A stretch of DNA of 64,000 bases from Actinostola sp. cb2023. Taxonomy: Eukaryota; Cnidaria; Anthozoa; Actiniaria; Actinostolidae. The stretch covers positions 310,001 to 374,000 of the forward strand of contig JAUJYZ010000412.1 in NCBI GenBank assembly GCA_033675265.1. Reading direction: 5' to 3'. The translations under genes and the position numbers were made by a program. Below, piece by piece: positions 27,304 to 60,127 of the stretch (the stretch's first letter is position 1; the number at the start of each line of letters is the position of its first letter). The notes beneath the pieces are model-generated. The model did no database searches, had not been told where the DNA came from, and saw nothing but the letters and a program-made list of their open reading frames with translations.

Positions 27304-30300
27304 GAGTTGCTATTTTTTTCAACCCTAAATCCGATATTGTTGTAAAAAAATCGTTAATGATAAAAACGGAAGATATATGATTTTCCACGTAACGATTGAT
27401 GAAGTTCATTTCACGCTGTGCAATGTTTATCTACCTAACGAAGCAAAAAATCAATGTATTTTTCTTGAAGAGTTAATGAAGAAAATGAATGAATTCCCAG
27501 AAGAACACATTCTTATCGGAGGTGATTTCAATTGCCCTTTGACTAATAAGGACAAAAAAGGTGGTTCTGACAATCAAACAAAACAAGCTGTTGTTGAATC
27601 TATAAACAAACTAATGACCAAATTCGATCTTAAGGATATCTGGAGAATAAAACATCCTGATCTTTAACGTTTTTCATGGAGAGACAAAGCTGTTAAGTTC
27701 CAGTCCCGTCTAGATTACTTTCTATTATCTAAACACCTTATCAAAGATACAGAAAATTGTCAAATACTCTACTTTCCCCACTCCGATCATTCCGCAGTCT
27801 CCATTTCTCTCAAAACAAAAGAACTAAAACAAGACAGAGGACCAGGTTTTTGGAAGTTCAACAGTTCTCTGCTAAAAGACAACATTTTCACAAAAGCGAT
27901 TCGTAAACATATCCAATTTATTACACAAAAGTATAACTCACTAACTAATAATTGTTTGAAATGGGATATGATTAAAATGGCGATTGGGATCATTACAAGA
28001 TCGTACTGCAAAAAGAAATTCCGCCAAAAACGAGACGAAGAAACAGAGCTCCTAGCGACATTAACCAAATTGGAACAAGAAATTGACAAAACAGAAATGA
28101 GACAATTAGAACGAGACTAATAAAACAGTCCGAATCCATCAAAGGTAATCTTGACCAAATACTCAACGAAAAGGTCAAAGGAACAATACTGCGAAGTAAA
28201 GTGAGATGGTACGAGGATGGTGAGAGAAATTCCAAATACTTCTATAATCTTGAAAAAAGAAATTTTAACAAAAAACATATAACAAAACTAGTAGTAGGAA
28301 ACAAAGTCATAGAGGAACCCAGTGAAATACTAAAGGAAGAAGAAAAGTTCTACCAAAATCTATATAAATCAGAGACCAAAATCAATGAACAACGAGAAGT
28401 TTTTCTGAAAAACATTAACTCGACCAATAAACTAACACCAGAACAAAAAAATGCATGTGAAGGTGTATTAACGGCAAAAGAGTGCCATTCAGCGCTGAAA
28501 CAGTTTACAAACAATAAGTCGCCAGGAACTGATGGTTTGACTACAGAATTTTATATATTTTTCTGGGACGAGCTAAAGGATACCCTGGTTCACTGCTTCA
28601 ACACAGCTTATCAATCAGGAAAACTGAGAAAAATTGGCGCCCAATTACATTATTAAATGTCGATTACAAAATAGCGACAAAAGCTATCGCAAAACGAATG
28701 GAAAACGTTCTCCAAAATATAATAAACCCAAATCAAACAGGATATGTTAAAGGAAGATACATAGGAGAAAACATTCGTCTCATTACAGATATAATGGAAT
28801 ATACAACAAAAAATGAACAAGCCGGAATTGCTATGTTCCTAGATTTTAGGAAAGCCTTTGATACTATAGAATGGTCCTTTATTGAAAAAGCATTGGTACT
28901 GTTCGATTTCGGGCCAGATCTGATCCGGTGGGTCAAAACCTTTTACACAGATATTTCTAGCTGCACTATAAACAACGATTTTGCTTCAAATGTTTTTACT
29001 CTAGAACGTGGCGTTAGGCAAGGTTGCCCTTTATCAGGATTACGTTTTGTTATAGGAATAGAAGCTCTGTCAATAGCAGTAAACAACGATCAAAGAATTA
29101 AAGGTATAAAGTTATATGATAACGAAGTGAAGTTGTCACAGTATGCTGATGACACAACCTGTTTCCTATATGATGAGACTTCTGCAAAACATTTACTTGA
29201 AGTAATAGATTCTTTTGGAAAGGCATCAGGCCTTAAACTAAACAAAAACAAAACCGAAGCACTATGGTTAGGTACCAAGCGATTCAGTAAAGATAAACCG
29301 CTTGAGTGTAAATGGCCAACAGAACCGGTGCTTGCTTTAGGGGTATTCTTTACTTATAACATGAAATTAGCAATGAAATTATTATTTTTTGACAAATTAG
29401 ACAATTTTAAAAGCTGTCTTTCTACATGGGAAAAGCGTAAATTAACACTGTACGGCCGAATAAAAATAGTAAAAACCCTAGGTCTTTCTAAGTTAGTATA
29501 CACTACGTCAGTAGTACCAATCCCAAATGGCTTTGCAGAACAAGTTGACAAGTATACCTTGAACTTTATTTGGCAAAATAAACCAGCAAAAAATTAAAAA
29601 AAGCACTTAAGATATACAAAAGCACTTAAGTGGGTGTCTCCGTAAAACACGCCCATCATTTTTTCGATCAAAATGAATTTCTCTTATACTCCTGTATTTT
29701 GAAGGCCTGACATAAGGAATCACTAATATCGATTTGGTTTCTTTGAAAATAATTGAAATATTTTTTTAGAATTTTTTTAAGTAGTTGCGCTGCTCATGGC
29801 AATTTCGAAGTCCAGCAGACTGTAAAATGTCAAGATTTTGCAACTGCCGCATAAAGTTAATTCGAGATTAAATGCAATACTTTTTGCATGGGTGTGTAGC
29901 TATATCCTTCTAGTTTCTTCGGCAATTTGGTTTTAAGAATTTGTATCTCACATTGTAATGGAATCAGGAAGAATATGGACCCTCATGCACGCGTTGTATT
30001 CATAATCCCAAACCACCCCAACTTTGAGGGCTTTTTTCAAAATCGTGGCACCTGATTCAAACTCGTTCACTATATGTGGATAAAGTACTAATGTTTATCA
30101 ATACAAAACGCCAATAAAATCTTTCTGCATAGCATTTTTGAAAAAATCGTAAGCGTTCAAACTTGGGGAAAATGCCCAAATCGAACTTCTGTCAGATTTC
30201 GATCGGTTCGAACTAACAACAAAACAAAATACCTGAATAGGCTTAGCCAGAGCTTGGTAGTCATAGTAAGTCCTTCTGAATCGTCTATAACGTGTAGAAT

Positions 30301-31476
30301 AATTGCTTGACCTCCAAGGTTAGGGAATCAAGTGGCCATTGTACGTATAAATGCCGTATATTCAACGATCAGTCCAGATCGTAACAGTGTTTTCATGGCT
30401 TCTGATGTTCTTGTAAATTCCATTGTGTGAGAATCTTCAGTGAAAATAGACGTCTACAGAGATCCAGTTATACATTTATCAAAGATCAATCGAGAATGGA
30501 GCTAAAGAATTGAAAATAATCGAGTAAACAACTTAGTTTCAATTCTTAGCCGGGTTCCGTGTTTACATTGAGATCATTCGTTCCCAGTCCCCCACTCCTT
30601 TTGTACCAGTGGGAGTGGTAGAGGGTATAACAAGTCTGGGTATCGTTTTCGTTTTAAATTTAAACTCTAATGAAGTATATGTTGTCGTGTGTATGAATAT
30701 ATATCTAATTGTTCTATATTTGTGCACTCGTTAGATAGTTTGGTGGGCTATCTGTGGTTGAAATACACAGGGAGCCCATGCAATCAGTCATTGGTATGCC
30801 GTCAGTATTGAAAAATGGAGTATAAATGTTCTTTTACTGAGTGCAAACCTAATTCTGGCTGTGGAGAATTCCGTGATACGCTAAACCGTTCTCTGATGTT
30901 GTTAGACTGTAAGGATGATATCACATGCCACTTACAAAGTTGTCATCTATCTAAACTTGTTGGTAAAATTGAAGAACATGAACTGATTTTGGCACGAGCC
31001 GGGCTGTTTTATATCCCCACTGAAGAGCAAGGAAAAATGTGGATCTGCCCAAAACACAGATATCATTTGGGCCGAAATTGGCGTCCTTTAAAAACATGCC
31101 AATTTCCAAAGCATTCCGGAGCAAAGAAGCAACTCAAGAACAAAGACATAGTGAATTTGGAAATGGCCAAAAAGATCCAAACGCAATTCGGAATAACTGT
31201 TCCAGTTGGATCAGGTAAAAAACTTAACCTAGTATAACTTAACACATAAAGTTTTATTGTTGTAATACGTAGAATGGAATATGTTTTAGTACCGGTGAAT
31301 ATTCACATGACTAATAAAGTCACAGTCACTAATAAAGCAGCGGTTTACTTTGATGTAATTGAACTGGAGTAATTGTCCATGAATTTGCGCTAATATTTAC
31401 ACTTGATGTAAATTTATGTATTTGCCTAGCAATTTGCACTTCGTGTTGTAAGAAGCATAAAAAAATGGATGAGCAA

Positions 31477-31514
<38 letters not shown>

Positions 31515-31689
31515 GATAACCCACATTAGAGACGTCGAGGAATCAAGGTTTGCAGAAGTGGCTGAACATTTTCCATGCCGATCCTAAAATATCTGACTTT
31601 CTGTTGTGCCCGCCTTTTGAATGGGTTGTCCATTTCGTCCAAGAAGTGATCCCTCCCCTGGGTCTCCGATCCTCGTGATAGCGAACTGT

Positions 31690-32490
31690 CCGTAATGCCG
31701 GGTGTCCTACTCTACCCTAGCCTACCCTAGCCTAGCCTACCCCACCCTACCCTAGTACCCTACCCTACCCTACCCTACCCTACCCTACCCTACCCTACCC
31801 TACCCTACCACGCCCTACCCTACCCTACCCTACCCTACCCTACCCTAGATCTGCCCCTAAAGTCGATTTTTAAAACTGAAAGTTTCATTTGTTTTCCCTT
31901 TGCATTTGTTTCCCCTCGTAATAGCGAACTGTCCGTAATGCCGGGGTGTCCTACTCTACCCTAGCCTACCCTACCCTACCCTAGCTAGCCTACCCTACCC
32001 CACCCTACCCTAGTACCCTACCCTACCCTACCCTACCCTACCCTACCCTACCCTACCCTACCTACCCTACCCTTGCTTACCTTACCCTACCCTACCCTTG
32101 CTTACCCTACCCTACCCTACCCTATCCTACCCTTGCTTACCCTACCCTACCACGCCCTACCCTACCCTAGCCTACCCTACCCTAGTACCCTACCCTAGTA
32201 CCCTACCCTACCCTTGCTTACCCTACCGTACCCTACCCTACCCTATCCTACCCTACCCTTGCTTACCCTACCCTACCCTACCACGCCCTACCCTACCCTA
32301 GCCTACCCCACCCCACCCTAGTACCCTACCTATACCCTAGTACCCTACCCTACCCTTGCTTACCCTACCGTACCCTATACCCTACCCTACCCTACCCTAT
32401 CCTACCCTACCCTACCCTACCCTACCCTTGCTTACCCTACCCTACCCTACCCTACCCTACCACGCCCTACCCTACCCTAGATCTCCCCCT
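31690..32490 (+). repeat. CCCTA pentamer array in a two-copy tandem duplication
   Basis: Arrays of CCCTA with variants (CCTAG, CTTGCTTAC) fill 31702-31845 and 31960-32478. Both are preceded by TAGCGAACTGTCCGTAATGC (31680, 31922) and followed by CTAGATCT..CCCTAAAGTCGATTT and TTTCCCTTTGCATTTGTTTC. So a unit of flank, array and flank is duplicated in tandem, with the second array longer. It lies in an intron of the G transposase gene. The repeat is a pentamer, not the TTAGGG telomere hexamer. Confidence 0.85.
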
Positions 32491-35400
32491 AAAGTCGATT
32501 TAAAAAAATCAAAGTTTCATTTGTTTTCCCTTTGCATTTGTTTCCCCTTTGTTAGACTGAGTAAAAGACTCGCTGAATTAAGCATAGCAACAACGTTAAC
32601 TACACCTTGTACTCCAGCCACTTTGAAACACCTACCATCGACTAAAAATGATCCTGAGTGGTCACCCGGACAGTGGCGTGGAAAAGATAATAGCAGCTCT
32701 CAAGAAGAGGATGAAGAGTATCAAGAGAAGGCAGAGTCTTTGTTACCCATGTACAATGAAGCAATGGCTACTTTATCAGTGAACACCAACATTGGTAAAG
32801 TTAGTCCATTGACGTTTCAGCTAAATACGACATGGGACGAAGCAACGGAGAAGGAAAAATAAATATGCATCGACAAAGCATTAGAAGGATGTAGCGTTGT
32901 GTGTAACGTAATCGCACCAAACGCTGGAGAGGAACTTTTACGGTCTTGTACCCAACTATCAGAGTCCGGGAGTGCTACTTGCGACCTTCTCGCCCTTATA
33001 CAGGCCTACAAAAATGCTCCAAAAAAAACTTGAAAACACAAATTCTCAGTCTTTATGCATACCGATATCCAATCAAGCAGTTACAGAAACTACATGAACC
33101 TCATGAGAGCATAACCGAATGGCAAATAAAAAAAGCAAGAAGGCATTATCGAGAATGTGGACCTGGTTTCACTGTTCACAATTCACCATCTCACCGTGTG
33201 CGTCTGCCGAAAGTCTTGCTAGATCATTTCATAGACTTTGTTAATCGACCATACTTTTATCAGGATGTGGCATTTGGAACCCGAAAATTGAAACTTGACA
33301 ACGGTGAAAAAATTACCATGCCTAACGTTATTCGTACCGTTACTCGTTCTACGATGATAAGTCAGTATCTTCAGTTTTGCGAAGAGGAGCTAGTCAAACC
33401 CCTTAGCCGTGCAACATTGTTCCGTATTCTAAGAGTTAGAGAAGCTTCCCAACAGAAATCGCTATGCGGCGTAGACGACACTGCAGCTGATGGATCATCT
33501 GCATTTGAGAAAATGTCTAAAATAGTGGATGACCTCCAGCAGCTTGGTAAAGATAATACTTGGTCAGCTAATATGAAAAGGTCTCTTCAAGATGGAAAAA
33601 GGTATTTGAAAACTGAATACCGTAATCACTGTCAACAAGATGAAAGTGAATGTTGTGATCATTGCCGTAAGTTTGCGTTAAGTGATTGTACTGATCCGCA
33701 TCTCCAGGAACATTGCACACACGAACACCAAGCGTCATGTGGTCAATGTGATGAAATCAAGGTCTGTCTTCATGAAATAGAACAAGTAATTAGAAGCGAA
33801 AGTGTCATTTTTTATAGTAAGGAACAAAAGGAAGATTTACTGTATGATTTTGACAGAGCTACAAAATCGATTCATGAGTGGAAAAGTCATATCATGAGAT
33901 CAGCAAATCAGGAGCGTGCCAAAAAAAACATCCTAGAAGGATTAGACTGTTCCTCAATTTTCATCCTAATGGACTGGGCTATGAAGTTTCTTCAGTTGCG
34001 ATACCGCGAGAAGCAGAGCGAATGGTACGGGAAAAGAGGCTTGAGTTGGCACATCAGCAGTGTGGTATCACGTGGTCAAGTAACTGGACAACTGAAAGTT
34101 ACTTCCTATGCCCATCTATTTGACAGATGTACCCAAGATTGGTACGCAGTAGCATCAATAATTGAGAATCTACTCCAACACTTGAAAAATAGAAACCCCA
34201 ATCTCTGTAAGGTCTACCTACGTTCTGACGAGGCGGGATGTTATCATAGCAACAACTTGATTGCCGCCGTGAGGGATATTGGAGAAAGAGTTGGCATTAC
34301 TGTTCAAAATTACGATTACTCAGAGCCCCAAAGTGGAAAAGATATGTGTGATAGAATCATTTGCCCAATGCAAACTTCAATTCGCACATATTGTTGCGAA
34401 GGCCATGACATTCTTACAGCGTGCGATATGAGAAATGCCCTACAACATCATCTAGTGAGAGGAACATCTGCTTCAGTTAACACCGTGAATGAAAGTCAGC
34501 AATACTTATTGATGAAGAAACTTGACCATTTCAGCAGCTTTCACAACTTTCACTTTGAAAATTCTGGTATAAGAGCATGGAAGGCGAATGGCATTGGTCA
34601 GGGAAAACATTTCCCATACAGTACAATATATGTTAAACACCAGGGACCAACCCTACTTCAAACAAAAGAAGGTTTCGTTGAACCCATCAAAGAGAGAGAA
34701 ATGAAGACAAAACAGCCTTTGCCCACGACGGAGACGGACGAAACGCCTCTCTTTGAGTGTCAATTTTCGGGATGCACGCAAGTCTTTAAGTGTCATTGTC
34801 AGAGAAAACAGGGCGGGGCCAAAATATGGGGATCAGCCGATTCTCTCTATCTTTTGTCCACTAAAAGAATATCCCATATGATGATGAACTGTGGTATTTA
34901 AAGTTTGGTCGACCTTTATTTTTTTGAGATTGACCACCCCCCTCCGTTTTTGACTTCTTGCACGGTCTATGATGCCTAAATCTTAGCCTAAACTTGACGA
35001 TCCAAAAAGTGAACATTACCTAGCCGCTGCCGAATTTTATGTTTCGACAGGTAAACTTAGCCTATAAAGAAGCTGTTTTAAAGAGTACAATCCAATCCGA
35101 CGAGTTGTACAAAATTGACACAGTTTTGAAATTTGCATATCAAACTCATTCGATTGAAGATCGTAAAATGGGTCATCTTTGAAAAAATCATTTTCTTGAA
35201 AGTGCGGCAGTTATTTTCAAAATAAATTACAGTCTGCAAAAGTACTATGCCTGAATATTAAGAAAAAGTAAAGTTACAATTGGGATCTCAAATTCCTTGG
35301 ATGTGAGTCGCCTCCAAAGTTGACACAAATCACGCCCGAAATGTGTTTGTTCGAGCGAAATATTTACTTCCGGTCGACACGGCATGGCGTGACTCTCTCT

Positions 35401-35948
35401 ATTTTCGACAAAAAGTCGCTGTTAATGTCATTACTGCACCTTTTGAGCGATAATTAAACTCAAATTGATGGAATTTAGATAGATTTGACGAAGTTTACAC
35501 TATAATGAAGTCCATATAAATATTTTATTGCATTCCTGACAACCTTTCATTTGTTTTGGTTGTGCTACATCGCTACATGCAGATGTTTACGAGAAAAATA
35601 TTACTTTACTGATCGGTCTTAAAGACAGTAATAGGCAAGAACATATAGCAGAATAAAAGGTATGTTGACTAAATTTGCCATAAAATAGTGTGTGTACCTT
35701 TCTACGTGTACAAATGTTGTCTTGTCACGGACAGTGTCACACAACAAGGTCAAACTGAAAAAGGATCATTGTTTTTATTTTTGTTTTCAATTGAATATCG
35801 CTGTTACCTTTAACGTAAGGCTATTATTATTTCTAACCTTGGTAATAAGCGTAAATTTTGCTATTTAATAAACAATTGAATGAGTTGTGATTATGCAAGA
35901 CTGAATGAGCTGTCAATTTGACTCATGTCAGTAATCAGCAGAGTTTGA

Positions 35949-36394
35949 TTGTGCAATCCGCATTTATATTCGACAATGGCTGTAGAAGTAAGTTGCTCGT
36001 TTGTATCGGATAATTCTCCATGTGGTCTCATTGGTTTAGCTACTACGCTAGTCCCGTTATCTGCATGTACTCAGGACATGACGCCTCATCTTGTAAGTCT
36101 ACAAGTGACTGGAAAACGAGGACTGGGAAAGACAGTACTCTCCGAAAAGGATCTAATCTTGAATCGTGCAGGATTGTTTGATTTGACAATTGAACAAGCA
36201 GAAGCAATGACAATCTGCCCAAAACATCGGAAAAACCTCACTACTGATTGGCAAGGTCGTAAAAGTCGTGTTTGTACTGATCCTATTCACGAAGGTCCGA
36301 GAAAACAGATACAACTTCCTTGTCGAGTCAATGCATCGATGTCCTTAGAAATCCATCAGATGTTGAACGCTGTACGTTGTGCCGATTGGTTCCG
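35949..36394 (+). CDS. N-terminal exon of a G-type transposase relative (in C1)
   Basis: Open from 35949 (or ATG 35976) to a GT donor at 36395. It encodes VSCSFVSDNSPCGLIGLA, then EKDLILNRAGLFDLT, ICPKHRKNLTTDWQG and RKQIQLPCRVNASMSLEIHQ. It is similar in order and spacing to exon 1 of the G transposase (ELILARAGLFYIP, ICPKHRYHLGRNWRP), including a Cys/His zinc-binding-like cluster. The catalytic core expected downstream is absent; element D1 and spacer occupy the region. The exon is intact and identical in C2 (57346-57791). Confidence 0.6.
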
Positions 36395-37051
36395 GTAAGA
36401 TTCTTTATAATAAATTCATAAATATCTATGAAAGGCAAATGTAAGAAGAGCAAGGAACCCAAAGAACAGGGTGGCAAATGTTTTTTTGCGTGACGCGTGA
36501 TAAAAATTAGACGCGTGATTCGTGATGATGCCCAAAATAGCCGCGCGTGATATTTACGCATTCTTGTCATTTTCTTTACGAATGGGCAGTTTGAATTGTT
36601 GGGTACCGTCAGTAGTCATATAAATTTATGTTGAAAAACATTCCATTGCACTTCCATCGCACTTAATTTTGGGGGGTTATAAGGGAGAGATTTACAGTGG
36701 TCTGAGCACTTTTGGACACACTCAAGTTTGATCACAGGCAGCATAACCATTGTTTCTGAGGCTACTTATAATAAAAGCAGGAGCCCATTACTCCTGAAAA
36801 AAGGATATTTGTATGCGCGCGTCTTTTTGATGGGTTTCCTGTGGTACTGATATGTTGGGCTCCCTGCCCTGTGCGTAGTAATGTATTATGTTGGGCTCTC
36901 TGTGCTTAGTACCGTATTATTTTGGGCTCCCTGTGCTTAGTAACGTATTCTGTTGGGCTCCCTGTGTGCGTCAAGAAGGACGCGCCCGCAGAAACTAAGC
37001 ACAGGGAGCCCAACATAATACGTATTGCGCGCGCGTTCTAACACAGGAAAC
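36395..37051. repeat. tandem TGGGCTCCCTGTG repeats in C1
   Basis: Between 36850 and 36970 four imperfect repeats of about 45 bp read GTTGGGCTCCCTGTGCTTAG (with CTCTCTG and other variants) then a T/A-rich spacer, followed by one inverted copy (CACAGGGAGCCCAACAT, about 36995-37015). Also present is CACAGGCAGCATAACCATTG at about 36735, a relative of the D-element end. No gene. Confidence 0.65.
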
Positions 37052-38732
37052 CACAGGCAGCCCAACCATTGTTTCTGAGGCTACTAATAATATATTTGTA
37101 TGCGCGCGTCTTTTTTTTATGGGTTTCCTGTGGTAGAGAGCGCGCGCGATACGTATTATATTTTCTTTAACAATGTTAGGAATAACTAAGTCCATGCAAA
37201 CTTTGGATGACTTGAAATAATTACTGAGTTCTTTGTCAGTAGCTTCAGTTACAAGTGCTGACCAAAGGCCATCCTTGACTGGCTGTTTTAATTTAGAATT
37301 GCTAGTACTGCAATGAATATGGGCCATTTGCTGCATTGTCTTAGCCTTTCTCCTAGTTTGCTGTGCTGTCCCCAGCTGCAGGCGATGGCTATTTTCTGAC
37401 TGAACAGCACTATCAATATTTGGTCTTCTATTGGAACGGGCATCTGTCCATGGGCCTGTATTTTCAATATTACTTTCCAGAGTTTCTACCTACAGAATAT
37501 TTTGAAAATCTAAATTAGTATCTTTAAATATAATCAGAATGAAGTTTTAATATTATTACATTTTTTTATATTCTAAATACACCAGAGGCATAAATATATG
37601 TAATATTAAATAAAAGTAGCATAAACGAATCTTTTAAAACAATGAAAATACCCTATTTAGTTTTATATATCTAAAAGTTTGAGATCAAACGCTATGTTCA
37701 CCTAAGTAGATCACAGCCATTTACAACATTTATCTTAGGAGAATTCACCTTTTGATCACTTAGCGTTCAGTTTGAGCTTTTGCTCGATTGCTACTTCAAA
37801 TTAGTATAAACATATATCTTACACGACTATCAGAGCATAAACTTACTTTCTTATTTCTGTACTTTAGTTTCTCCGTCAGTTTGGCCACAGTTTTGTCCGC
37901 TTTTACTTGCTCGGTAGCAATTTCCACTCTGGCGATTTTCTTCTGACGAGCGTACTCTCCGATCGGGAATCGTCTCTTTCTGACAGGCCGTGGCGATATA
38001 GCATTTGAAACCCTTGGTTAAAAATCATAATCGAATGAGATAGCTAAACACAAGTACGATCATCTTGACCAGATATAAATATCCTAAAATCGTATCGTCT
38101 TGGATTTTTTCTTTTCTCTTTAGAAACAGAAACATATTTCTTCAAACATACTACAAAATATCACCATATTAGCTATAATTCACAACAAAAGTTCTGTCTG
38201 GATGTTAATAGGTTTTCTCGCTAAATATTTGACCGATTTTCTTCAGAAAAAGGGCAAACGAAAGCTTTACTTACCTAGCATCTGAATCTGGCGCCATTTC
38301 GCGCAAGAGATGAAAAGATCCCTTGCTACACCCTACAGAGTAAGCACAATTCCTTCTCTCACATCCCCGCACGATTCAGTCTGATTAGTTCCCAGACTCC
38401 GTACATTGGCCGCGCGAGAAAAATCAACACAGAAATACAGTATCAAGTGAGGGGAGGCATTTGACCCGGCGGGCCCTGTGCATACAAATGTATGATGTTG
38501 AGATCCCTGTGCGCATCCCGCGCGTCCCGCAGTACATGTGTATATTTAACTATGTACATTGCTGCGGGCGCGTCCCGCAGGACGCACACAGGGATCCCAA
38601 CATTATACATTTCTATGCACAGGAAACCCAATATAATACGTATCGCGCGCGCGCGCTCTACCACAGGAAACCCATAAAAAAGACGCAAATATATTTTTAG
38701 TAGCCTCAAAAGCAATGGTTGGGCTGCCTGTG
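37052..38732. mobile_element. element D1: TIR element nested in C1
   Basis: CACAGGCAGCCCAACCATTG at the left is matched by CAATGGTTGGGCTGCCTGTG at the right; the arms continue for about 90 bp including a CGCGCGCG run. AGGAAAC precedes and AGGAAAT follows, a possible 6-bp duplication (AGGAAA). It lies immediately before the C-terminal exon of the C transposase relic and carries one spliced minus-strand gene. Confidence 0.65.
37150..38297 (-). CDS. three-exon unknown gene of element D1
   Basis: Minus-strand exons 38297-38275, 38012-37847 and 37489 to about 37150 join with GT/AG borders in phases 2 and 0 and no stop. The protein starts MAPDSDAR. Exon 2 is basic with a coiled-coil-like helix (KTVAKLTEKLKYRNKK). 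Exon 3 holds RRKAKTMQQMAHIHC, KDGLWSALVTEATDKELSNY and SSKVCMDLVIPNI, then runs into the TIR, where the frame continues to 36995, so the true C-terminus is uncertain. I do not recognise the family. An intact spliced frame kept in both copies suggests a recent gene, perhaps cut short or captured. Confidence 0.55.
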
Positions 38733-39760
38733 AGGAAATTAGGGCGTGGCGAAGCTATAACATCGGGACCGGACGTCTTTTCAAGTACGAAGAGCTTCAA
38801 GTCAGGCACAACAGGAAACTGGCTTAGAAGTGTTACAGCAGTTTGGACCCCGTACTCGAGAGCTGGGTACAATTGCAGGAAACGCCCAAGACCCGTCATC
38901 AAAGAACGACATCTATTCATGTAGCGAGACTGATTGCGTTCTCACTTTCAAGACAAGTTCTGAAGCAGAGGCTCATATGGACATTGGTAAACATGTGAGA
39001 AAAAACGAGAGAGAATCTATTTACGATTCAATAAGGAAAACCTGGGCTGAGAAAGTTACTGGTGTACAACATACTACCATAGCCAGACCATCAGAACACA
39101 TAGAAGAATCAAGCCGAACAACAGCATCAGTCACCGGATTCGTGCGGGGCCTCTGAAAGCCAAGTAGCTATCGGGTGGGCCCTAAAGACCAGCAGAACTT
39201 GGACAAGAATGGGAGAAAAGGCCAAATTATTTCTTACAGAGCAATTTGACGATGGGGCTGCAAGTGAGCTAAATTAAGGTAGATCCAGCACAGGTATCGA
39301 GAGAAATGAAAAGAGCGAAAGATGAGCATGGAACATCACTGTTCAAGCCAGAAGAGTGGAGGACAGCTGAACAAATTAAAAGCTTTTTCTCGCGAATGTC
39401 AGCCAAACAAAAACAACAGCAAATAAACGTGGATGAAAGATAAGAAGACTTATCAGAGGAAGATGTCGTAGCAATACAAGCCCGAGAATCTTTTGAAGCC
39501 TTGAGAAATGCCGTGATACAAGACATGGATGTCCCTAGTCACCCTGTTATAGTCGGAGAAAGGAACATCTGTCAACTATCTTGTGATGGGAAACTCAGCC
39601 GCCTACAAATAGCAGAACTTAGAACTATCTGTGAATGTCTGGAGATTGAAGTTCAAGGAACTGTCAAAAGAAAAATAACATACATAAAACCACTCGAAGA
39701 GTTTCTACTTGCATCAGTGCTCTTGCAAGCAATCATAAATAGAGCACTCTGCCACAGCAA
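38733..39760 (+). pseudogene. C-terminal part of a G-type transposase relic (in C1)
   Basis: Starts at the D1 border with EEIRAWRSYNIGNGRLF, then a C2H2-like finger (CSETDCVLTF...AHMDIGKH), an SIRKTWAEKV block, KVDPAQVSREMKRAKDEHG, EQIKSFFSRMSAKQ and CQLSCDGKLSRLQIAELRTI. It parallels the G protein C-terminus block by block. A 1-base loss near 38812 (absent in C2), a stop after FVRGL (39156) and a TAA near 39440 break it. It ends in poly-G runs (39802-39857). Confidence 0.7.
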
Positions 39761-39801
39761 CGAACGTTTTATATTGGGACAGCAGGGCCGTAGGCTGGAA
39801 C

Positions 39802-39857
39802 GGGGGGGGGGGGGGAGTAAACGGGAGGGGGGGGGGGGGGGGTAACGGGGGGGGGGG
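39802..39857. repeat. poly-G microsatellites
   Basis: Runs of G broken by AGTAAACG and TAACG. The same site in C2 (61200-61253) has different run lengths. These account for several spurious Pro/Gly-rich open frames. Confidence 0.85.
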
Positions 39858-42800
39858 AGGATTGGGTGCTTTTATGTATCTTATTGTTACTAATTTGAGT
39901 GGGGCATACTCTTTGCGACGATGGTGGAGTTGAATTTTGCGGGACTCTCTGGACACTCTCAGACGCGAATATTTCTGTCAAAAAGGGTAGGTAACTTGAT
40001 CTTGATTTTAGGCTTGTTTTCCATAAATACCTCTTAGCAACCGATAGCAAGGTCCGTGCCGTACCTTTTTCAGCGACTGATGGCCCAAGCGCAAAGCGCG
40101 CAGAAAAACGAGGATCAATATTATGAAACTGACGAGCAAACGAGGTTAATACATTTTTATTATGTACCGATTACGGACGGAAAACATGGACCAACTAGCT
40201 TGAAAAGTTACCTGTCCATATAATAATGACACTTATCTTTCAGTATCACAAGTAAAATGACTGAGTTTGGGATTTTCAATCAAAATCGCGATAATCCCGA
40301 CAAACTCGTGATAGTTGCACACTCTGTAATCAAATAAACTCGGGTCAAGAATTCATTTTATTGTAAGACTTCCTCTCATATATTGTGTGCCCCCACTCCC
40401 CCTAGCCTACGGGCCTGTGAACATCGTAAAATAGTATCGTCACGCTTTTTATAATGCATTACCAAATGCTAATTACAAACTAGACCCTACTTTTACAGAT
40501 CACAGTTAGACAAGACAAAATTTGTACACGTAGAAAGGTATACTATTTTATGGCAAATTTAGTCAACATACCTTTTATTCTGCTATATGTTCTTGCCTAT
40601 TACTGTCTTTAAGACCGATCAGTAAAGTAATATTTTTCTCGTAAACATCTGCATGTAGCGATGTAGCACAACCAAAACAAATGAAAGGTTGTCAGGAATG
40701 CAATAAAATATTTATATGGACTTCATTATAGTGTAAACTTCGTCAAATCTATCTAAATTCCATCAATTTGAGTTTAATTATCGCTCAAAAGGTGCAGTAA
40801 TGACATTAACAGCGACTTTTTGTCGAAAATAGAGAGAGTCACGCCATGCCGTGTCGACCGGAAGTAAATATTTCGCTCGAACAAACACATTTCGGGCGTG
40901 ATTTGTGTCAACTTTGGAGGCGACTCACATCCAAGGAATTTGAGATCCCAATTGTAACTTTGCTTTTTCTTAATATTCAGGCATAGTACTTTTGCAGACT
41001 GTAATTTATTTTGAAAATAACTGCCGCACTTTCGAGAAAATGATTTTCAAAGATGACCCATTTTACGATCTTCAATCGAATGAGTTTGATATGCAAATTT
41101 CAAAACCGTGTCAATTTTGTACAACTCGTCGGATTGGACTGTACTCTTTAAAACAGCTTCTTTATAGGCTAAGTTTACCTGTCGAAACATAAAATTCGGC
41201 AGCGGCTAGGTAATGTTCACTTTTTGGATCGTCAAGTTTAGGCTAAGATTTAGGCATCATAGACCGTACAAGAAGTCAAAAACGGAGGGGGGTGGTCAAT
41301 CTCAAAAAAATAAAGGCCGACCAAACTTTAAATACCACAGTTCATCATCATATGGGATAGTCTTTTAGTGGACAAAAGATAGAGAGAATCAGCTGACCCC
41401 CATCTTTTGGCCCCGCCCTGTTTTCTCTGACAATGACACTTAAGACATTTGCAGAAATGGAGTTACATCTTGATGTGGGCGAACACAGGCCAGTGGAACA
41501 AAAAAGCACATACGACAGTATCAGGAAAGATTGGGCAGCTAAGTTTGCATCAATTGATGTTACGCGTAACGTCAATAGTAAGACAAAACCTTCATCGTTC
41601 ACGGGCACTATCAGAATAACACCCCTTCAAATGGGATGGGCACAAAGTAAGACACGCTGGCACTGTGCGTTTCTCGCCCAAAGTAAAAGAGTATCTAACA
41701 ACTAAATTTATGATAGGTGAAAGAACCGAACGTAAAGCAGATCCAGCCCAAGTTCAAAAGGATATGAGAAATGCCAGAAATATGACATCGAATGACCGTC
41801 AATTCAACTGTAAAGAATGGTTAACAACTACACAGATCAAGAGCTTTTTCTCTCGTCTTGCCGCATCACGTAGAAAGAACATCGTTGGACTATCGTTAGA
41901 ACTAGAAGAAGAAGAAGTAGCATGCCTAGTCGAAGACTCAGAGAGACAAGAGATGATTGAAACAATCAATGACGAGATTGGATTAAAACACCCTATAACC
42001 TATGATATATATGATCTCTGTGATTATTGCCGCCAGGACAAGCTTGCAGCGTTTAACGTTGCTATGCTTAAAAGTATTTGCTCCCACCTTGAAGTTCCAT
42101 TCAAGTCCAAAGACAAGAAAAGCGACCTCGTTGCCAAGCTTACAGACGTTATTTCGGAATGTGAATGTACTAGCTCCCAAATGTAAATGTAGCGGTTTGA
42201 CACCACTTCTCGACAAAGGTAAAACAAATGACTGTATACGAGTTTACATTTATATATAATGCCTGTTTTCCAATGACTGTTATTATCTATTTTGGTTCAT
42301 TATGACCATAAGATTAGACTATGAAAAAAAAAAACACCATAGGAAACGGTTATGTTTTGATACACAACACGGAACTGACACTGCCGCGGCACGTCAATTT
42401 TTCATAATCATAGAATTTGTGCTTTATTACTCCGAGCAGTGACAAGTTTGGGCTCCCTGTGTATTTTTACCACAGGTAGCCCACCAAACCTATTTAACGA
42501 GTGCACAAATATAGAAAAATTATATACATGTATATATATATTCATACACACGACAACATATACTAATTTAAAACGAAAACGATACCCAGACTTGTTATAC
42601 CCTCTACCACCCCCACTGGTACAAAAGGAGTGGGGGACTGGGAACGAATGATCTCAATGTAAACACGGAACCCGGCTAAGAATTGAAACTAAGTTGTTTA
42701 CTCGATTATTTTCAATTCTTTAGCTCCATTCTCGATTGATCTTTGATAAATGTATAACTGGATCTCTGTAGACGTCTATTTTCACTGAAGATTCTCACAC

Positions 42801-44074
42801 AATGGAATTTACAAGAACATCAGAAGCCATGAAAACACTGTTACGATCTGGACTGATCGTTGAATATACGGCATTTATACGTACAATGGCCACTTGATTC
42901 TCTAACCTTGGAGGTCAAGCAATTATTCTACACGTTATAGACGATTCAGAAGGACTTACTATGACTATCAAGCTCTGGCTAAGCCTATTCAGGTATTTTG
43001 TTTTGTTGTTAGTTCGAACCGATCGAAATCTGACAGAAGTTCGATTTGGGCATTTTCCCCAAGTTTGAACGCTTACGATTTTTTCAAAAATGCTATGCAG
43101 AAAGATTTTATTGGCGTTTTGTATTGATAAACATTAGTACTTTATCCACATATAGTGAACGAGTTTGAATCAGGTGCCACGATTTTGAAAAAAGCCCTCA
43201 AAGTTGGGGTGGTTTGGGATTATGAATACAACGCGTGCACGAGGGTCCATATTCTTCCTGATTCCGTTACAATGTGAGATGCAAATTCTTAAAACCAAAT
43301 TGCCGAAGAAACTAGAAAGATATAGCTACACACCCATGCAAAAAGTATTGCATTTAATCTCGAATTAACTTTATGCGGCAGTTGCAAAATCTTGACATTT
43401 TACAGTCTGCTGGACTTCGAAATTGCCATGAGCAGCGCAATTATTTTAAAAAATTATAAAAAAATATTTCAATTATTTTCAAAGAAACCAAATCGATATT
43501 AGTGATTCCTTATGTCAGGCCTTCAAAATACAGGAGTATAAGAGAAATTCATTTTGATCGAAAAAATGATGGGCGTGTTTTACGGAGACACCCACTTAAG
43601 ATATACTGGATCAAAAGGCTAAGTGACCCTCAAATTGCAGCGTGGAAAATAATCCCCCTCAAAATGCTCACCAAATATGGAAGAAATGTTATATTTCAAT
43701 GCAATTATGACATAAAGGATCTAAATCTAAGCAACCTATCACCATTTTATACCCAAGTGTTATCGTACTGGCAAGAGTTAAAATCGAACATAGACACAGA
43801 ACTTAAAATCTAAAACTGTTATGACGAAATATTATGGTACAATAAAAACTTAAAAATAGGACAGAAAAATAAGCGACCTACTAGAAGAGAAAAAAGAAGA
43901 ATTTCTCTCTGTTTCCTCTTTTGAAGAAAAATACAACATCAAAACGAATTTCATCCAATTTGCTGGCCTAATAAGTGCAATTAAAAGTTACAAGCAAAAG
44001 ATCATCTTGCAACAATCAGAGACATCGAAAAACGTTTCCACTCCAAAATGGCTAGCCAATCATGCAAAACTTAA

Positions 44075-49205: not shown

Positions 49206-49218
49206 AAGGGCCACTTCC

Positions 49219-49397
49219 GAATTCCGACTTCTGAGTTCCGACTTCTGAGTTCCGACTTCTGAGTTCCGACTTCTGAGTTTCGACTTCTGAGTTCCGACTT
49301 CTAAGTTCCGACTTCTGAGTTCCGACTTCTGAGTTCCGACTTCTGAGTTCCGACTTCTGAGTTCCGACTTCTGAGTTCCGACTTCTGAGTTCCGAAA
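49219..49397 (+). repeat. 14-bp minisatellite
   Basis: About 13 tandem copies of TTCCGACTTCTGAG with rare variants (TTTCGAC, TCTAAG). The period is not a multiple of 3, so the long open frames across it are artefacts. Confidence 0.93.
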
Positions 49398-49534
49398 TAT
49401 TGTTCAAATCCTGAGGACTGAGTTTGATTGACAGCCACCCAAACTAAAATAATTAAATAAACCAACCTATTTTGTTTTCCAGACAGCTTTCTGAGATCTG
49501 CATAATTATATATACTTTTTTATTTGTTCTCAAC

Positions 49535-51720
49535 AGGTGCACGTTAGTACGTGCTCGGAGGTAGCGAGTCACTGTAGTGTATTTGCGCTTAGCGACAGTA
49601 CAAATCCCGACCTACGGCAACAGTGCGACCACCAACACGATGAGCTCTGCGAGCAGTGTGAAAACCTAAGCTCAGCCATCGAAAGCATTTCAACAGCAGT
49701 GGAACAGGTCACGTTCACAACAAATGATGACAGAGATGAAGCCGTGTATCTTGCCAAGTCAGCTACGCTGGCCGTTAGCTCGTGGAAGTGCCACTTACTG
49801 AGATCAGCGCACCAAGACCAAGCTCGTTTGGATGTCATCGCTGCCCTTAACAACGAGACCGTGTTCATTGGCAACGACTGGGCAATGAAGTTTTTGCCCC
49901 AGCGATACAGAGAGTCCCAAACTGACTGGTTTGGAAAACGCGGCATATCGTGGCATATATCCGTTGCATACCGGCGAGTGGACGGCGAGCTGAAGTGGGA
50001 AGGTTTTATTCACGTGATCCAGTCCTGCAGCCAGTCAAGTGCAGCTGTCATTTACCATAATGCGCCATGTGCTTGACACGCTGAAGAAGGAGCACCCAGA
50101 CATTACCAAGGCGTACTTCCGACAGGACAACGCGGGTTGTTACCACTCGTCCAGCACGATAATGGCGTGTCGTGACCTAGCAACCCACACCGGTATCCAT
50201 GTGGCGCGTATCGATTTCAGCGACCCGCAAGGCGGAAAGGGAGCAGCCGATCGGCTAGTGGCGACTTGTAAATCCCACATCAGAACATATATCAATGAGG
50301 GTCACGACGTGTGCACCGCAGCTGACATGAAGGATGCGCTGCTGTCCAACGGAGGCCTGAAAGGAGTGCGAGTGGCTGCCATAGACACGATCTTAGAGAT
50401 CCCAGAAACTTCGTGCACGATCAAGGGCATCACGAAACTCAACAACTTCGAGTTCAGTGCCACAGATGCCATCACATGTTGGCGTGCCTATGGTGTTGGC
50501 CAAGACACAACCATCCAAACAGACAAGCTAACATCCGGTGAGTACAACTAATAGCATAAAGCGATAAATGAAAATAAGGCAAGACACAATCTAAACTGAT
50601 CAGTGATTTTTTTAAATCCATCGCCGCTAAATCGCCGGGCGATTTTTGGTTGCAATAAAATCGCCGACAAAATCGCCCGTGTAAACGGCTCTTGCCAGGG
50701 ACAAGCAATCGACCAATCAATCAATGTTTGATGCATGTTTGATCACTGCACTTAACTAAGAACAGGACAAAAGTGGTTCGCATGCATACATTTACTCGTA
50801 TCTTGTTTTCAAATATTCCAGAGCCCGATATTGGTTGTCTTGAAACATCGTTCTCTCCTGGAGATTTCCGTTCCTTTTCTGTATCGTTCAAAGCAAAGAA
50901 GAGTAGCGCTGTGACAGTCCCGGAAGCAGAAGGGAGTGAGTTGTCCAAGGCGAATGTCGATGATCTGGAGGGTAGTGCGGGTGTGTATAACTGTCCCCAG
51001 GACGGATGTACGCGTTGTGGGCACTGGACAAGCACCTCTCCTTGGAACAATGCAGCAAGTCCTCATGGATTTGGCCAAAGTTGGCTACAAGTCGCGATTA
51101 GAGGAAGGTGTGAGCGCATTACCAACCATCAAGGCCTCTATGCATTCTCTATCCAGTGATCAGAGTCTAAACGGCGTTCCCGCGAAAGAAGGCTGGGCAC
51201 TCCGAACAACAAAAAAGGCTTACCGCTTCAGCGAAAAGCAAAAAAGCTACCTTCTCGCCAAATTTCGAATCGACCAGACGACCGGCCGAAAGCTAGATGG
51301 CGAAGTGGTCGCCCGAGAGATGAGACGCAGCCGTGGGCCAGATGGTGCAAGATTATTCATGGCATCAGAATTCCTCTCGGCAACTCAGATTGCCTCCTAC
51401 TTTTCGCGCCTCAATGCCGCAGCACGCCAGCGTGACCCGACGAGATGGACATCCAGACAGGTAATGAAGAGGCGAATTTCGCATGTGCCAGAAGTATGGT
51501 GGAAAGTAGCGAGCCCCAGCACCCTATTGTCTACGATCAATATGATCTGTGCGCGATGGGTGATGCAGAGCTGAAGAGTTTCAAGTTGCCGACGCTACAG
51601 CGCATGTGCGAGGATCTAGGGCTGGATATTCCGTCACGCCCCGTGCGCAAGAGAGCTCCGTACCTCGGCTTGCTCAAAGACCTTGTCAGCAGCTGTACAT
51701 GCCGCCATGAGGGACACTAA
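49535..51720 (+). pseudogene. second G-type transposase relative, GC-rich (locus H)
   Basis: It follows an AG acceptor at 49533-49534. It encodes a Cys/His block (CSEVASHCSVFALSD, CDHQHDELCEQC), NDWAMKFLPQRYRESQTDWF, GKRGISWHISV, a frameshift near 50042, FRQDNAGCYHSSSTI, FSDPQGGKGAADRL and YINEGHDVCTAADMKDAL. An intron (about 50537-50820) precedes a finger-like YNCPQDGCTR. Then come YRFSEKQKSYLLAKFRI, EFLSATQIASYFSRLNAA, and, after a frameshift near 51445, PIVYDQYDLC..LKSFKLPTLQRMC to the stop at 51720. It matches the G protein block by block and is visibly more GC-rich than its surroundings. No TIRs were found around it. Confidence 0.75.
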
Positions 51721-56112: not shown

Positions 56113-57345
56113 TTTGTTAAGGTTTTCTCAAACATTTTCATCAAAAGTTTGTGTGCATACAAATGTTTGAAAATTTGGCCAGGCTTAAGTGTCATTGTCA
56201 GAGAAAACAGGGCGGGGCCAAAATATGGGGATCAGCCGATTCTCTCTATCTTTTGTCCACTAAAAGAATATCCCATATGATGATGAACTGTGGTATTTAA
56301 AGTTTGGTCGACCTTTATTTTTTTGAGATTGACCACCCCCCTCCGTTTTTGACTTCTTGCACGGTCTATGATGCCTAAATCTTAGCCTAAACTTGACGAT
56401 CCAAAAAGTGAACATTACCTAGCCGCTGCCGAATTTTATGTTTCGACAGGTAAACTTAGCCTATAAAGAAGCTGTTTTAAAGAGTACAGTCCAATCCGAC
56501 GAGTTGTACAAAATTGACACAGTTTTGAAATTTGCATATCAAACTCATTCGATTGAAGATCGTAAAATGGGTCATCTTTGAAAATCATTTTCTTGAAAGT
56601 GCGGCAGTTATTTTCAAAATAAATTACAGTCTGCAAAAGTACTATGCCTGAATATTAAGAAAAAGTAAAGTTACAATTGGGATCTCAAATTCCTTGGATG
56701 TGAGTCGCCTCCAAAGTTGACACAAATCACGCCCGAAATGTGTTTGTTCGAGCGAAATATTTACTTCCGGTCGACACGGCATGGCGTGACTCTCTCTATT
56801 TTCGACAAAAAGTCGCTGTTAATGTCATTACTGCACCTTTTGAGCGATAATTAAACTCAAATTGATGGAATTTAGATAGATTTGACGAAGTTTACACTAT
56901 AATGAAGTCCATATAAATATTTTATTGCATTCCTGACAACCTTTCATTTGTTTTGGTTGTGCTACATCGCTACATGCAGATGTTTACGAGAAAAATATTA
57001 CTTTACTGATCGGTCTTAAAGACAGTAATAGGCAAGAACATATAGCAGAATAAAAGGTATGTTGACTAAATTTGCCATAAAATAGTGTGTGTACCTTTCT
57101 ACGTGTACAAATGTTGTCTTGTCACGGACAGTGTCACACAACAAGGTCAAACTGAAAAAGGATCATTGTTTTTATTTTTGTTTTCAATTGAATATCGCTG
57201 TTACCTTTAACGTAAGGCTATTATTATTTCTAACCTTGGTAATAAGCGTAAATTTTGCTATTTAATAAACAATTGAATGAGTTGTGATTATGCAAGACTG
57301 AATGAGCTGTCAATTTGACTCATGTCAGTAATCAGCAGAGTTTGA

Positions 57346-57791
57346 TTGTGCAATCCGCATTTATATTCGACAATGGCTGTAGAAGTAAGTTGCTCGTTTG
57401 TATCGGATAATTCTCCATGTGGTCTCATTGGTTTAGCTACTACGCTAGTCCCGTTATCTGCATGTACTCAGGACATGACGCCTCATCTTGTAAGTCTACA
57501 AGTGACTGGAAAACGAGGACTGGGAAAGACAGTACTCTCCGAAAAGGATCTAATCTTGAATCGTGCAGGATTGTTTGATTTGACAATTGAACAAGCAGAA
57601 GCAATGACAATCTGCCCAAAACATCGGAAAAACCTCACTACTGATTGGCAAGGTCGTAAAAGTCGTGTTTGTACTGATCCTATTCACGAAGGTCCGAGAA
57701 AACAGATACAACTTCCTTGTCGAGTCAATGCATCGATGTCCTTAGAAATCCATCAGATGTTGAACGCTGTACGTTGTGCCGATTGGTTCCG
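57346..57791 (+). CDS. N-terminal exon of a G-type transposase relative (in C2)
   Basis: Translates identically to the C1 exon at 35949-36394, with the same GT donor. See that entry for motifs. No core follows it here either. Confidence 0.6.
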
Positions 57792-58447
57792 GTAAGATTC
57801 TTTATAATAAATTCATAAATATCTATGAAAGGCAAATGTAAGAAGAGCAAGGAACCCAAAGAACAGGGTGGCAAATGTTTTTTGCGTGACGCGTGATAAA
57901 AATTAGACGCGTGATTCGTGATGATGCCCAAAATAGCCGCGCGTGATATTTACGCATTCTTGTCATTTTCTTTACGAATGGGCAGTTTGAATTGTTGGGT
58001 ACCGTCAGTAGTCATATAAATTTATGTTGAAAAACATTCCATTGCACTTCCATCGCACTTAATTTTGGGGGGTTATAAGGGAGAGATTTACAGTGGTCTG
58101 AGCACTTTTGGACACACTCAAGTTTGATCACAGGCAGCATAACCATTGTTTCTGAGGCTACTTATAATAAAAGCAGGAGCCCATTACTCCTGAAAAAAGG
58201 ATATTTGTATGCGCGCGTCTTTTTGATGGGTTTCCTGTGGTACTGATATGTTGGGCTCCCTGCCCTGTGCGTAGTAATGTATTATGTTGGGCTCTCTGTG
58301 CTTAGTACCGTATTATTTTGGGCTCCCTGTGCTTAGTAACGTATTCTGTTGGGCTCCCTGTGTGCGTCAAGAAGGACGCGCCCGCAGAAACTAAGCACAG
58401 GGAGCCCAACATAATACGTATTGCGCGCGCGTTCTAACACAGGAAAC

Positions 58448-60127
58448 CACAGGCAGCCCAACCATTGTTTCTGAGGCTACTAATAATATATTTGTATGCG
58501 CGCGTCTTTTTTTTATGGGTTTCCTGTGGTAGAGAGCGCGCGCGATACGTATTATATTTTCTTTAACAATGTTAGGAATAACTAAGTCCATGCAAACTTT
58601 GGATGACTTGAAATAATTACTGAGTTCTTTGTCAGTAGCTTCAGTTACAAGTGCTGACCAAAGGCCATCCTTGACTGGCTGTTTTAATTTAGAATTGCTA
58701 ATACTGCAATGAATATGGGCCATTTGCTGCATTGTCTTAGCCTTTCTCCTAGTTTGCTGTGCTGTCCCCAGCTGCAGGCGATGGCTATTTTCTGACTGAA
58801 CAGCACTATCAATATTTGGTCTTCTATTGGAACGGGCATCTGTCCATGGGCCTGTATTTTCAATATTACTTTCCAGAGTTTCTACCTACAGAATATTTTG
58901 AAAATCTAAATTAGTATCTTTAAATATAATCAGAATGAAGTTTTAATATTATTACATTTTTTTATATTCTAAATACACCAGAGGCATAAATATATGTAAT
59001 ATTAAATAAAAGTAGCATAAACGAATCTTTTAAAACAATGAAAATACCCTATTTAGTTTTATATATCTAAAAGTTTGAGATCAAACGCTATGTTCACCTA
59101 AGTAGATCACAGCCATTTACAACATTTATCTTAGGAGAATTCACCTTTTGATCACTTAGCGTTCAGTTTGAGCTTTTGCTCGATTGCTACTTCAAATTAG
59201 TATAAACATATATCTTACACGACTATCAGAGCATAAACTTACTTTCTTATTTCTGTACTTTAGTTTCTCCGTCAGTTTGGCCACAGTTTTGTCCGCTTTT
59301 ACTTGCTCGGTAGCAATTTCCACTCTGGCGATTTTCTTCTGACGAGCGTACTCTCCGATCGGGAATCGTCTCTTTCTGACAGGCCGTGGCGATATAGCAT
59401 TTGAAACCCTTGGTTAAAAATTATAATCGAATGAGATAGCTAAACACAAGTACGATCATCTTGACCAGATATAAATATCCTAAAATCGTATCGTCTTGGA
59501 TTTTTTCTTTTCTCTTTAGAAACAGAAACATATTTCTTCAAACATACTACAAAATATCACCATATTAGCTATAATTCACAACAAAAGTTCTGTCTGGATG
59601 TTAATAGGTTTTCTCGCTAAATATTTGACCGATTTTCTTCAGAAAAAGGGCAAACGAAAGCTTTACTTACCTAGCATCTGAATCTGGCGCCATTTCGCGC
59701 AAGAGATGAAAAGATCCCTTGCTACACCCTACAGAGTAAGCACAATTCCTTCTCTCACATCCCCGCACGATTCAGTCTGATTAGTTCCCAGACTCCGTAC
59801 ATTGGCCGCGCGAGAAAAATCAACACAGAAATACAGTATCAAGTGAGGGGAGGCATTTGACCCGGCGGGCCCTGTGCATACAAATGTATGATGTTGAGAT
59901 CCCTGTGCGCATCCCGCGCGTCCCGCAGTACATGTGTATATTTAACTATGTACATTGCTGCGGGCGCGTCCCGCAGGACGCACACAGGGATCCCAACATT
60001 ATACATTTCTATGCACAGGAAACCCAATATAATACGTATCGCGCGCGCGCGCTCTACCACAGGAAACCCATAAAAAGACGCAAATATATTTTTAGTAGCC
60101 TCAAAAGCAATGGTTGGGCTGCCTGTG
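58448..60127. mobile_element. element D2: copy of the D element in C2
   Basis: Same CACAGGCAGCCCAACCATTG ends and possible AGGAAA duplication as D1. It must have been in C before C spread, since both C copies carry it at the same place. Confidence 0.65.
58546..59693 (-). CDS. three-exon unknown gene of element D2
   Basis: Minus-strand exons 59693-59671, 59408-59243 and 58885 to about 58546, with the same phases and borders as the D1 gene. One residue differs (CSTSN in D1, CSISN here). No lesion is seen in either copy. Confidence 0.55.

What the first reader, a model, noticed from the sequence alone, without database searches (positions are those of the whole stretch)
29630..43595. Candidate undescribed TTAA-targeting transposon family (G, C, and locus H)
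Seen: element G has near-identical 1.1-kb TIRs, a TTAA flank on each side and one large spliced gene. The non-autonomous element C has similar architecture, the same TTAA target, the same initial GTG at its tips, and relics of the same protein. A third relative lies at 49535-51720. The protein is defined by DWAMKF, WH(I/V)S, D(N/E)AGCYH, (S/D)(E/D)PQ(S/G)GK, a C2H2-like finger and QI.S(F/Y)FSRL. Knowledge: the TTAA superfamilies I know are piggyBac and Kolobok; Kolobok has a different GDGRCDSPG-type motif, absent here. Inference: a separate TTAA superfamily, or a very divergent branch, with Asp residues of DWAM and D.AGCYH as catalytic candidates.
Basis: partly seen in the sequence, partly recalled or inferred. 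Interest (0 to 1): 0.85.

Follow-up and report, generated by a model that had tools for sequence, protein, structure and literature searches.

The report
TTAA-targeting cut-and-paste jumping gene family
A very abundant, largely unannotated family of animal DNA transposons sits almost always at the sequence TTAA and carries a transposase-like protein with the same catalytic fold as retroviral integrases; whether it is a new superfamily or an already named one (most likely Sola3) could not be settled here.

The parts
29626..29629 (.). Left target-site copy TTAA of G
29630..43595 (+). Element G, 13,966 bp with C nested (7,312 bp without C and one TTAA)
   Evidence: sister copies in own genome
29630..30778 (+). 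Left terminal inverted repeat of G
42449..43595 (-). Right terminal inverted repeat of G
43596..43599 (.). Right target-site copy TTAA of G
30815..31237 (+). N-terminal exon of the transposase gene (Cys/His-rich ICPKHR domain)
   Evidence: 34-35% identity, E 1.6e-13 to gene model P0121 (partial) and 2.8e-11 to P0145; 38% to the exon in C
32569..34789 (+). Main coding exon of the G transposase, 5' part; frame broken at 32860-32862 and near 33.02 kb
   Evidence: tblastn with P0004/P0019, ORF list
33816..34664 (+). RNase H-fold catalytic core
   Evidence: AlphaFold2 pLDDT 94.5, pTM 0.91; integrase/Mos1 matches
33972..33974 (+). Asp 1 (DWAMKF), strand b1
   Evidence: Asp in 325 of 326 relatives with a residue there; strand 47-54
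34227..34229 (+). Asp 2 (DEAGCYH), end of strand b4
   Evidence: Asp in 322 of 325; end of strand 132-138
34350..34352 (+). Asp 3 (GKDMCDR), N-terminus of the helix after b5
   Evidence: Asp in 323 of 325; helix 177-194; in register with the DUF7869-type Asp
41444..42180 (+). Main coding exon of the G transposase, 3' part: rest of C2H2 finger, QI.SFFSRL block, SAP/HeH-like end
34786..34789 (.). Left target-site copy TTAA of C, inside the C2H2 finger codons of G
   Evidence: empty site in L041
34790..41439 (+). Element C, 6,650 bp, non-autonomous (no core found)
34790..35726 (+). Left terminal inverted repeat of C
40509..41439 (-). Right terminal inverted repeat of C
41440..41443 (.). Right target-site copy TTAA of C
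35979..36395 (+). N-terminal exon homologue inside C
38761..39713 (+). C-terminal transposase relic inside C
56185..62839 (+). C', second copy of C (56189-62835) with TTAA on both sides
49534..51720 (+). H, relic of a second-clade transposase (DNAGCYH type) with frame breaks

Best explanation
G and C belong to one large family of cut-and-paste DNA transposons. A transposase of about 1,000-1,200 residues (N-terminal Cys/His domain, helical region, Cys/His-rich segment, integrase-type RNase H core with a D-(about 80-86)-D-40/41-D triad, C2H2 finger, SAP-like tail) is inferred to bind the ~0.7-1.1-kb terminal inverted repeats, cut the element out and join it to TTAA, leaving TTAA on both sides. 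Shown: the ends, the TTAA duplication with an empty site, the predicted fold, the conserved triad, near-identical copies, copies without the gene. Inferred: which domains bind DNA, that the Asp triad catalyses transfer, that gene-less copies and C move with enzyme supplied in trans, and that excision is clean. C inserted into the gene of a G copy; G itself sits in what looks by eye like a LINE. The family is a distant relative of DUF7869/QNKN proteins and may be Repbase Sola3, or an unnamed sister of it.
Against: No movement, cutting or binding was observed. G's own gene is broken. 3 of 20 tips lack TTAA (L074 and L080, which also begin ATG, and L086); the left tip of L050 is damaged and L024 had no readable tip. 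5 of 321 relatives depart from D-D-D. hhalign probability for the DUF7869 link is only 38% and 30% despite P 3.3e-4 and 5.4e-4. Foldseek's best PDB row for the core is a herpesvirus terminase nuclease (E 7.7e-4), with Mos1 at E 1.3e-3, so the fold alone does not prove a transposase. The superfamily name rests partly on recall.
Confidence: 0.93

Rival explanations
1. The family is Repbase Sola3 (or a lineage inside Sola): a DDD transposase with TTAA targets, already named although no Pfam model for it was seen.
For: DDD triad and 4-bp TTAA duplication; remote in-register match to DUF7869/QNKN proteins, and weak Pfam DUF7869 hits in 3 of 38 members, best E 0.069; hosts include Nematostella and Branchiostoma floridae, long mined by Repbase (recall). 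That Sola3 targets TTAA and that QNKN proteins are Sola-type are my recall.
Against: Nothing direct: no Sola sequence or Repbase entry could be consulted and the naming paper is not held. One DUF7869 element (L095) has ~37-bp inverted ends and AT-rich but unmatched flanks, which settles nothing.
Confidence: 0.5
2. An unnamed superfamily of TTAA-targeting DDD transposons.
For: No transposase model among the Pfam rows shown for 50, 7 and 38 members (E up to 0.1, 0.5 and 10; only 25 of 31 and 25 of 55 families printed in 32 and 120). In the three lists of 120 proteins (overlapping, most rows without any name) none is called a DNA transposase. The listings of ten literature searches showed no description of it.
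Against: Pfam is not a transposon library; its abundance in well-studied genomes makes an existing Repbase name likely; the remote DUF7869 link suggests a sister of something known; the paper library is partial.
Confidence: 0.33
3. A divergent branch of Kolobok or piggyBac.
For: Same TTAA target; the GAG-tipped subfamily has 5'-RR ends as reported for Kolobok (PMC9587614 passages).
Against: G and C tips are 5'-GT, not RR. The C/DxxH motif reported for Kolobok and relatives between the 2nd Asp and last acid occurs in 3 of 323 relatives and not in G. No piggyBac model among the Pfam rows shown.
Confidence: 0.05
4. G and C were moved by an unrelated TTAA enzyme and merely carry the gene as cargo.
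For: Gene-less copies could be moved by any enzyme that recognises their ends; other TTAA elements with different ends lie in the same window.
Against: The same kind of gene lies inside elements with three different tip types, GTGGG, GTGTC and GAGTC, and it encodes an RNase H transposase-like core.
Confidence: 0.04

Closest known systems
Sola superfamily, Sola3 group (Repbase)
   Same: 4-bp target duplication; DDD-type transposase; TTAA target for Sola3 (DDD and Sola3 details recalled)
   Different: Unknown for Sola3: no sequence was available. The Sola2 elements described in PMC3627910 (passages) have AT-rich AWWT-type duplications and 12-21 bp TIRs; here TTAA and 0.7-1.1 kb TIRs
Pfam DUF7869 (QNKN-type proteins; 122 matches in this genome)
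   Same: 2nd and 3rd Asp align in register over 103 columns (score 42.7 against 16.4 reversed and at most 23.3 in 40 shuffles)
   Different: D.CGGQNKN and GH(T/S)...D motifs instead of D.AGCYH and (E/D)PQ.GK..CDR; below the Pfam cut-off
Kolobok
   Same: TTAA target; DDD/E transposase; zinc-binding additions
   Different: 5'-RR ends and C/DxxH before the last Glu in Kolobok (PMC9587614 passages); here 5'-GT ends in G and C, almost no C/DxxH between the acids, compact DD41D
piggyBac
   Same: TTAA target
   Different: No piggyBac Pfam model among the rows shown; long TIRs
Retroviral integrases and Mos1 mariner (fold level)
   Different: 8-14% identity; different accessory domains; integrases and Mos1 are not TTAA-specific (recall)

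Membership tests
DDE/D RNase H-fold cut-and-paste transposons | RNase H-like catalytic core | tested here: met
   predicted structure
DDE/D RNase H-fold cut-and-paste transposons | Three conserved acidic residues at b1, b4 and the helix after b5 | tested here: met
   316 of 321 relatives covering all three columns and model
DDE/D RNase H-fold cut-and-paste transposons | Terminal inverted repeats and constant-length target duplication with an empty site | tested here: met
DDE/D RNase H-fold cut-and-paste transposons | Transposase activity | not testable with these tools
   needs an assay
Sola (Sola3) | TTAA target, 4-bp duplication (recalled for Sola3) | tested here: met
   the feature itself is recalled
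Sola (Sola3) | DDD triad (recalled) | tested here: met
Sola (Sola3) | Significant sequence or profile similarity to Sola transposases | not testable with these tools
   no Sola sequences; naming paper not held; DUF7869 used as an uncertain stand-in
Kolobok | TTAA target | tested here: met
Kolobok | 5'-RR termini (PMC9587614) | tested here: not met
   G and C tips 5'-GT; the GAG subfamily would meet it
Kolobok | C/DxxH between 2nd Asp and last acid (PMC9587614) | tested here: not met
   absent in G's core; in 3 of 323 relatives
piggyBac | TTAA target | tested here: met
piggyBac | Match to the piggyBac transposase Pfam domain | tested here: not met
   absent from the Pfam tables (25 of 31 and 25 of 55 families printed in 32 and 120; the unprinted ones match few members)
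DUF7869 (PF25273) | Score above the curated Pfam cut-off | tested here: not met
   3 of 38 members weak (best E 0.069); first member 11.9 bits against a cut-off of 26; remote profile match only

The most novel reading that the evidence does not exclude
A third, previously unnamed TTAA-targeting superfamily of eukaryotic DNA transposons, defined by a compact DDD core with 40-41 residues between the last two Asp (DWAMKF / D.AGCYH / (E/D)PQ.GK..CDR) fused to Cys/His, C2H2 and SAP-like domains, spread through cnidarians, lancelets, echinoderms and molluscs and, with DUF7869 proteins, forming a wider clan of integrase-like enzymes.
Probability: 0.33. Interest if true: 0.75.

Novelty: new variant of a known kind. 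Interest (0 to 1): 0.55.

Why it matters
TTAA elements of the piggyBac type are prized tools because they insert at a fixed site and (recall) leave cleanly. A TTAA enzyme that is not recognisably piggyBac or Kolobok would show TTAA targeting in a different enzyme lineage and could offer a new tool. Members are deposited as 'uncharacterized' or 'C2H2-type domain-containing' proteins, so gene sets of corals, anemones and lancelets may count many transposases as host genes.

Tried and rejected
H element ends: a TTAA-bearing inverted pair spanning H (47557/55303, 21 nt, 81%) did not extend further and was dropped as chance.

Homology of G and C ends to each other: only short matches. They share TTAA and the first bases GTG.

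Prokaryote and virus origin: scans of genome contigs and viral contigs with A1 confirmed no relative (10 and 19 pattern matches, none confirmed). The viral fold library gave one row at E below 0.001, an Ostreid herpesvirus protein, which I read as general RNase H-fold similarity.

Other third acids: position 170 is D 179 / E 142 and three other letters; position 176 is D 172 / G 151 / A 2; both rejected in favour of Asp179. Glu65 (326 of 327) is as conserved but lies between b1 and b2 in the model.

Selection to tell: A2 (86 rows) was not a neutral sample. Of 95 representatives I left out 16, many with a broken motif, and added the window core and 6 proteins; its 86 of 86 triad is therefore inflated, on all 328 proteins, replaces it.

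RFX-type DNA-binding domain: weak Pfam match in 37 of 50 members, best E 0.00033; first member 17.5 bits, below the cut-off of 27; kept as a hint only.

DUF7869 element's duplication: flanks are AT-rich but the two sides of L095 do not match, so nothing is claimed. Ends of the L059-L061 elements were not resolved.

Sola literature: naming paper and the catalytic-domain survey not held; the passages seen in the other papers gave no Sola3 sequence or target statement. piggyBac, Hermes and other transposases do not appear in the 50 rows shown; by the tool's own note this excludes nothing.
Full report
WHAT IS THERE. The window is G000:C330:310001-374000 of a 424-Mb genome in 1,594 contigs. I infer an animal: the closest named relatives of the protein are from sea anemones and corals. 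G runs from 29630 to 43595 with TTAA at 29626-29629 and 43596-43599. Its arms are 99% complementary over 1,036 bases and extend with gaps to about 1.15 kb. By eye, G sits in a LINE: an open frame with a YADD motif ends at 29597, just before the left TTAA, and another open frame spans the right flank; this was not tested by a search. The left flank also holds a partial 19-base tandem duplication beside the TTAA, unexplained.

C AND C'. C (34790-41439, 6,650 bp) has TTAA on both sides and ~0.94-kb arms. It splits the C2H2 finger codons of G's gene; joining its flanks with one TTAA restores CQFSGCTQVFKTFAEMELHLDVGEH in frame. Three facts confirm it. First, a sister copy of G at C785 (L041, 8.8 kb, TTAA at both ends) has the same sequence uninterrupted, with exactly one TTAA. 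Second, a database protein 98% identical to G over 92% of the query (P0001) reads through that site without C, in a shifted frame. Third, a copy of C, C', lies at 56189-62835 with 26 differing columns of 6,653 and TTAA on both sides in unrelated DNA. The finding given to me does not mention C'.

GENOME-WIDE TEST OF THE TARGET. The first 300 bases of G gave 40 matches in the own genome (101 candidates, 40 scored). In the 30 loci returned I found 31 tips with at least 25 of 30 matching bases, in 29 loci (none in L024); 31 of 31 follow TTAA. Independent insertions are fewer than 31: two of the loci are the window's own G, two pairs of loci share a flank, and many tips are the two ends of one element. 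Of 13 whole elements fetched singly, 12 have TTAA at both ends and one (L050) has a damaged left tip; the two ends 19 kb apart at C690 also have TTAA. Of these 15 loci only L041 matched the protein (three query proteins, E up to 1e-5); the other 14 showed no gene. C's first 300 bases gave 43 match rows (212 candidates, 40 scored). Of 20 tips fetched, 17 follow TTAA: 10 of 13 C-type tips (L074 and L080 begin ATG and lack TTAA; L086 has TACA) and 7 of 7 of a third subfamily with GAGTC tips. An element of that third subfamily (L094) is 7,624 bp with TTAA at both ends, 701-bp arms at 97.9%, the N-terminal exon and an open frame of 1003 codons with all three motifs. The C family also has a copy (C1180, ends at 223677 and 231269) whose interior matches the transposase at 227100-228842 with two stops inside; so C looks like a derivative that lost the core.

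THE PROTEIN. The exon at 30815-31237 matches the N-termini of gene models from Actinostola (P0121, labelled partial) and Exaiptasia (P0145), and by eye the same domain stands at the start of a Nematostella model (P0254); this supports one spliced gene. In G the frame is interrupted at 32860-32862 and near 33.02 kb, besides C. Relatives: 659 proteins at E up to 0.001 with G, 558 with H, 647 with a lancelet relative; the best 120 of each are listed, the lists overlap, and most rows carry no name. Named hosts include Actinostola, Exaiptasia, Nematostella, Oculina, Montipora, Porites, Stylophora, Acropora, Pocillopora, Orbicella, Paramuricea, three Branchiostoma species, Antedon and Mytilus. No listed row is called a DNA transposase; one row (P0166) has precomputed Pfam domains, the others none. 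In the own genome the protein search had 1,113 candidates, 70 of which were scored, and all 70 matched; 11 of the 70 lie in open frames of 990-1,018 residues with no stop inside the match.

RELATION TO KNOWN GROUPS. Pfam scans of 50, 7 and 38 members showed no transposase model (25 of 31 and 25 of 55 families are printed in the first and last). A weak DUF7869 hit (3 of 38, best E 0.069) led me to collect DUF7869-type frames from this genome (ten of the 18 loci fetched were aligned). Profile comparison gave score 42.7, P 3.3e-4, probability 38%, 103 columns, with Asp138 on the Asp of D.CGGQNKN and Asp179 on the Asp of GHT...(N)D; a second alignment of relatives gave 41.2, P 5.4e-4, 30%. Reversed columns scored 16.4 and 40 column shuffles at most 23.3. 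I take this as a real but remote relation. From memory, QNKN proteins are Sola-type transposases and Sola3 targets TTAA; neither statement comes from a call. Kolobok's 5'-RR ends and C/DxxH (PMC9587614, passages) are not met by G; C/DxxH occurs in 3 of 323 relatives. Papers seen: outline with abstract and passages of PMC9587614; passages of PMC4455052, PMC5199201, PMC8634313, PMC10294476, PMC5753468, PMC3985635, PMC3706591, PMC3627910, PMC8230255 and PMC2836005; PMC8969392 searched with no hit.

MECHANISM. Most likely cut-and-paste by an integrase-type DDD enzyme that recognises long inverted repeats and joins to TTAA. Shown: TTAA duplication, ends, predicted fold, triad, near-identical copies, gene-less copies. 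Inferred: catalysis, DNA-binding roles of the zinc, helical and SAP-like parts, supply in trans, clean excision.

VERDICT. A real and well-bounded transposon family. It is a new variant of a known kind with an open name: about 0.5 that it is Sola3 or within Sola, 0.33 that it is unnamed.

Noticed in passing
window 4413-5722 and 10081-11399: Two copies (97% alike) of a ~1.3-kb palindromic element, TTAA CTGGCCGTCTC ... GAGAC(A/G)GCCAG TTAA: another TTAA-flanked family with different ends.
   Followed up: partly
window 44071-44636: Small element with 178-base 97% arms, TTAA AGGGGGACTAGTACG ... CGTACTAGTCCCCCT TTAA; ends look Kolobok/T2-like (recall).
   Followed up: no
window 31700-32500: CCTAC-type satellite inside the intron of G; a similar stretch is present in sister copy L041.
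   Followed up: no
window 29600-29629: Partial 19-base tandem duplication of the target flank beside the left TTAA of G, perhaps a trace of an earlier event.
   Followed up: no
window 36913-37162 and 38559-38732 (repeated in C'): Inverted short repeats (82 and 47 bases) around the spot in C where the catalytic core would be expected.
   Followed up: no
window 49213-49395: Tandem array of a 14-base unit just upstream of H.
   Followed up: no
L085 (G000:C732:411554-411614): The base run left of this C tip's TTAA reads like the end of another C element, so two C copies seem to stand back to back sharing one TTAA.
   Followed up: no
G000, 122 matches: DUF7869 (QNKN-type) proteins are abundant in this genome; one element (L095) has ~37-base inverted ends 4 kb apart.
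   Followed up: partly
P0041, P0124, P0253: Database names such as 'Gammaproteobacteria bacterium MAG', 'Pol poly from transposon 412' and 'SURP and G-patch domain-containing' on family members look like contamination or fused gene models.
   Followed up: no
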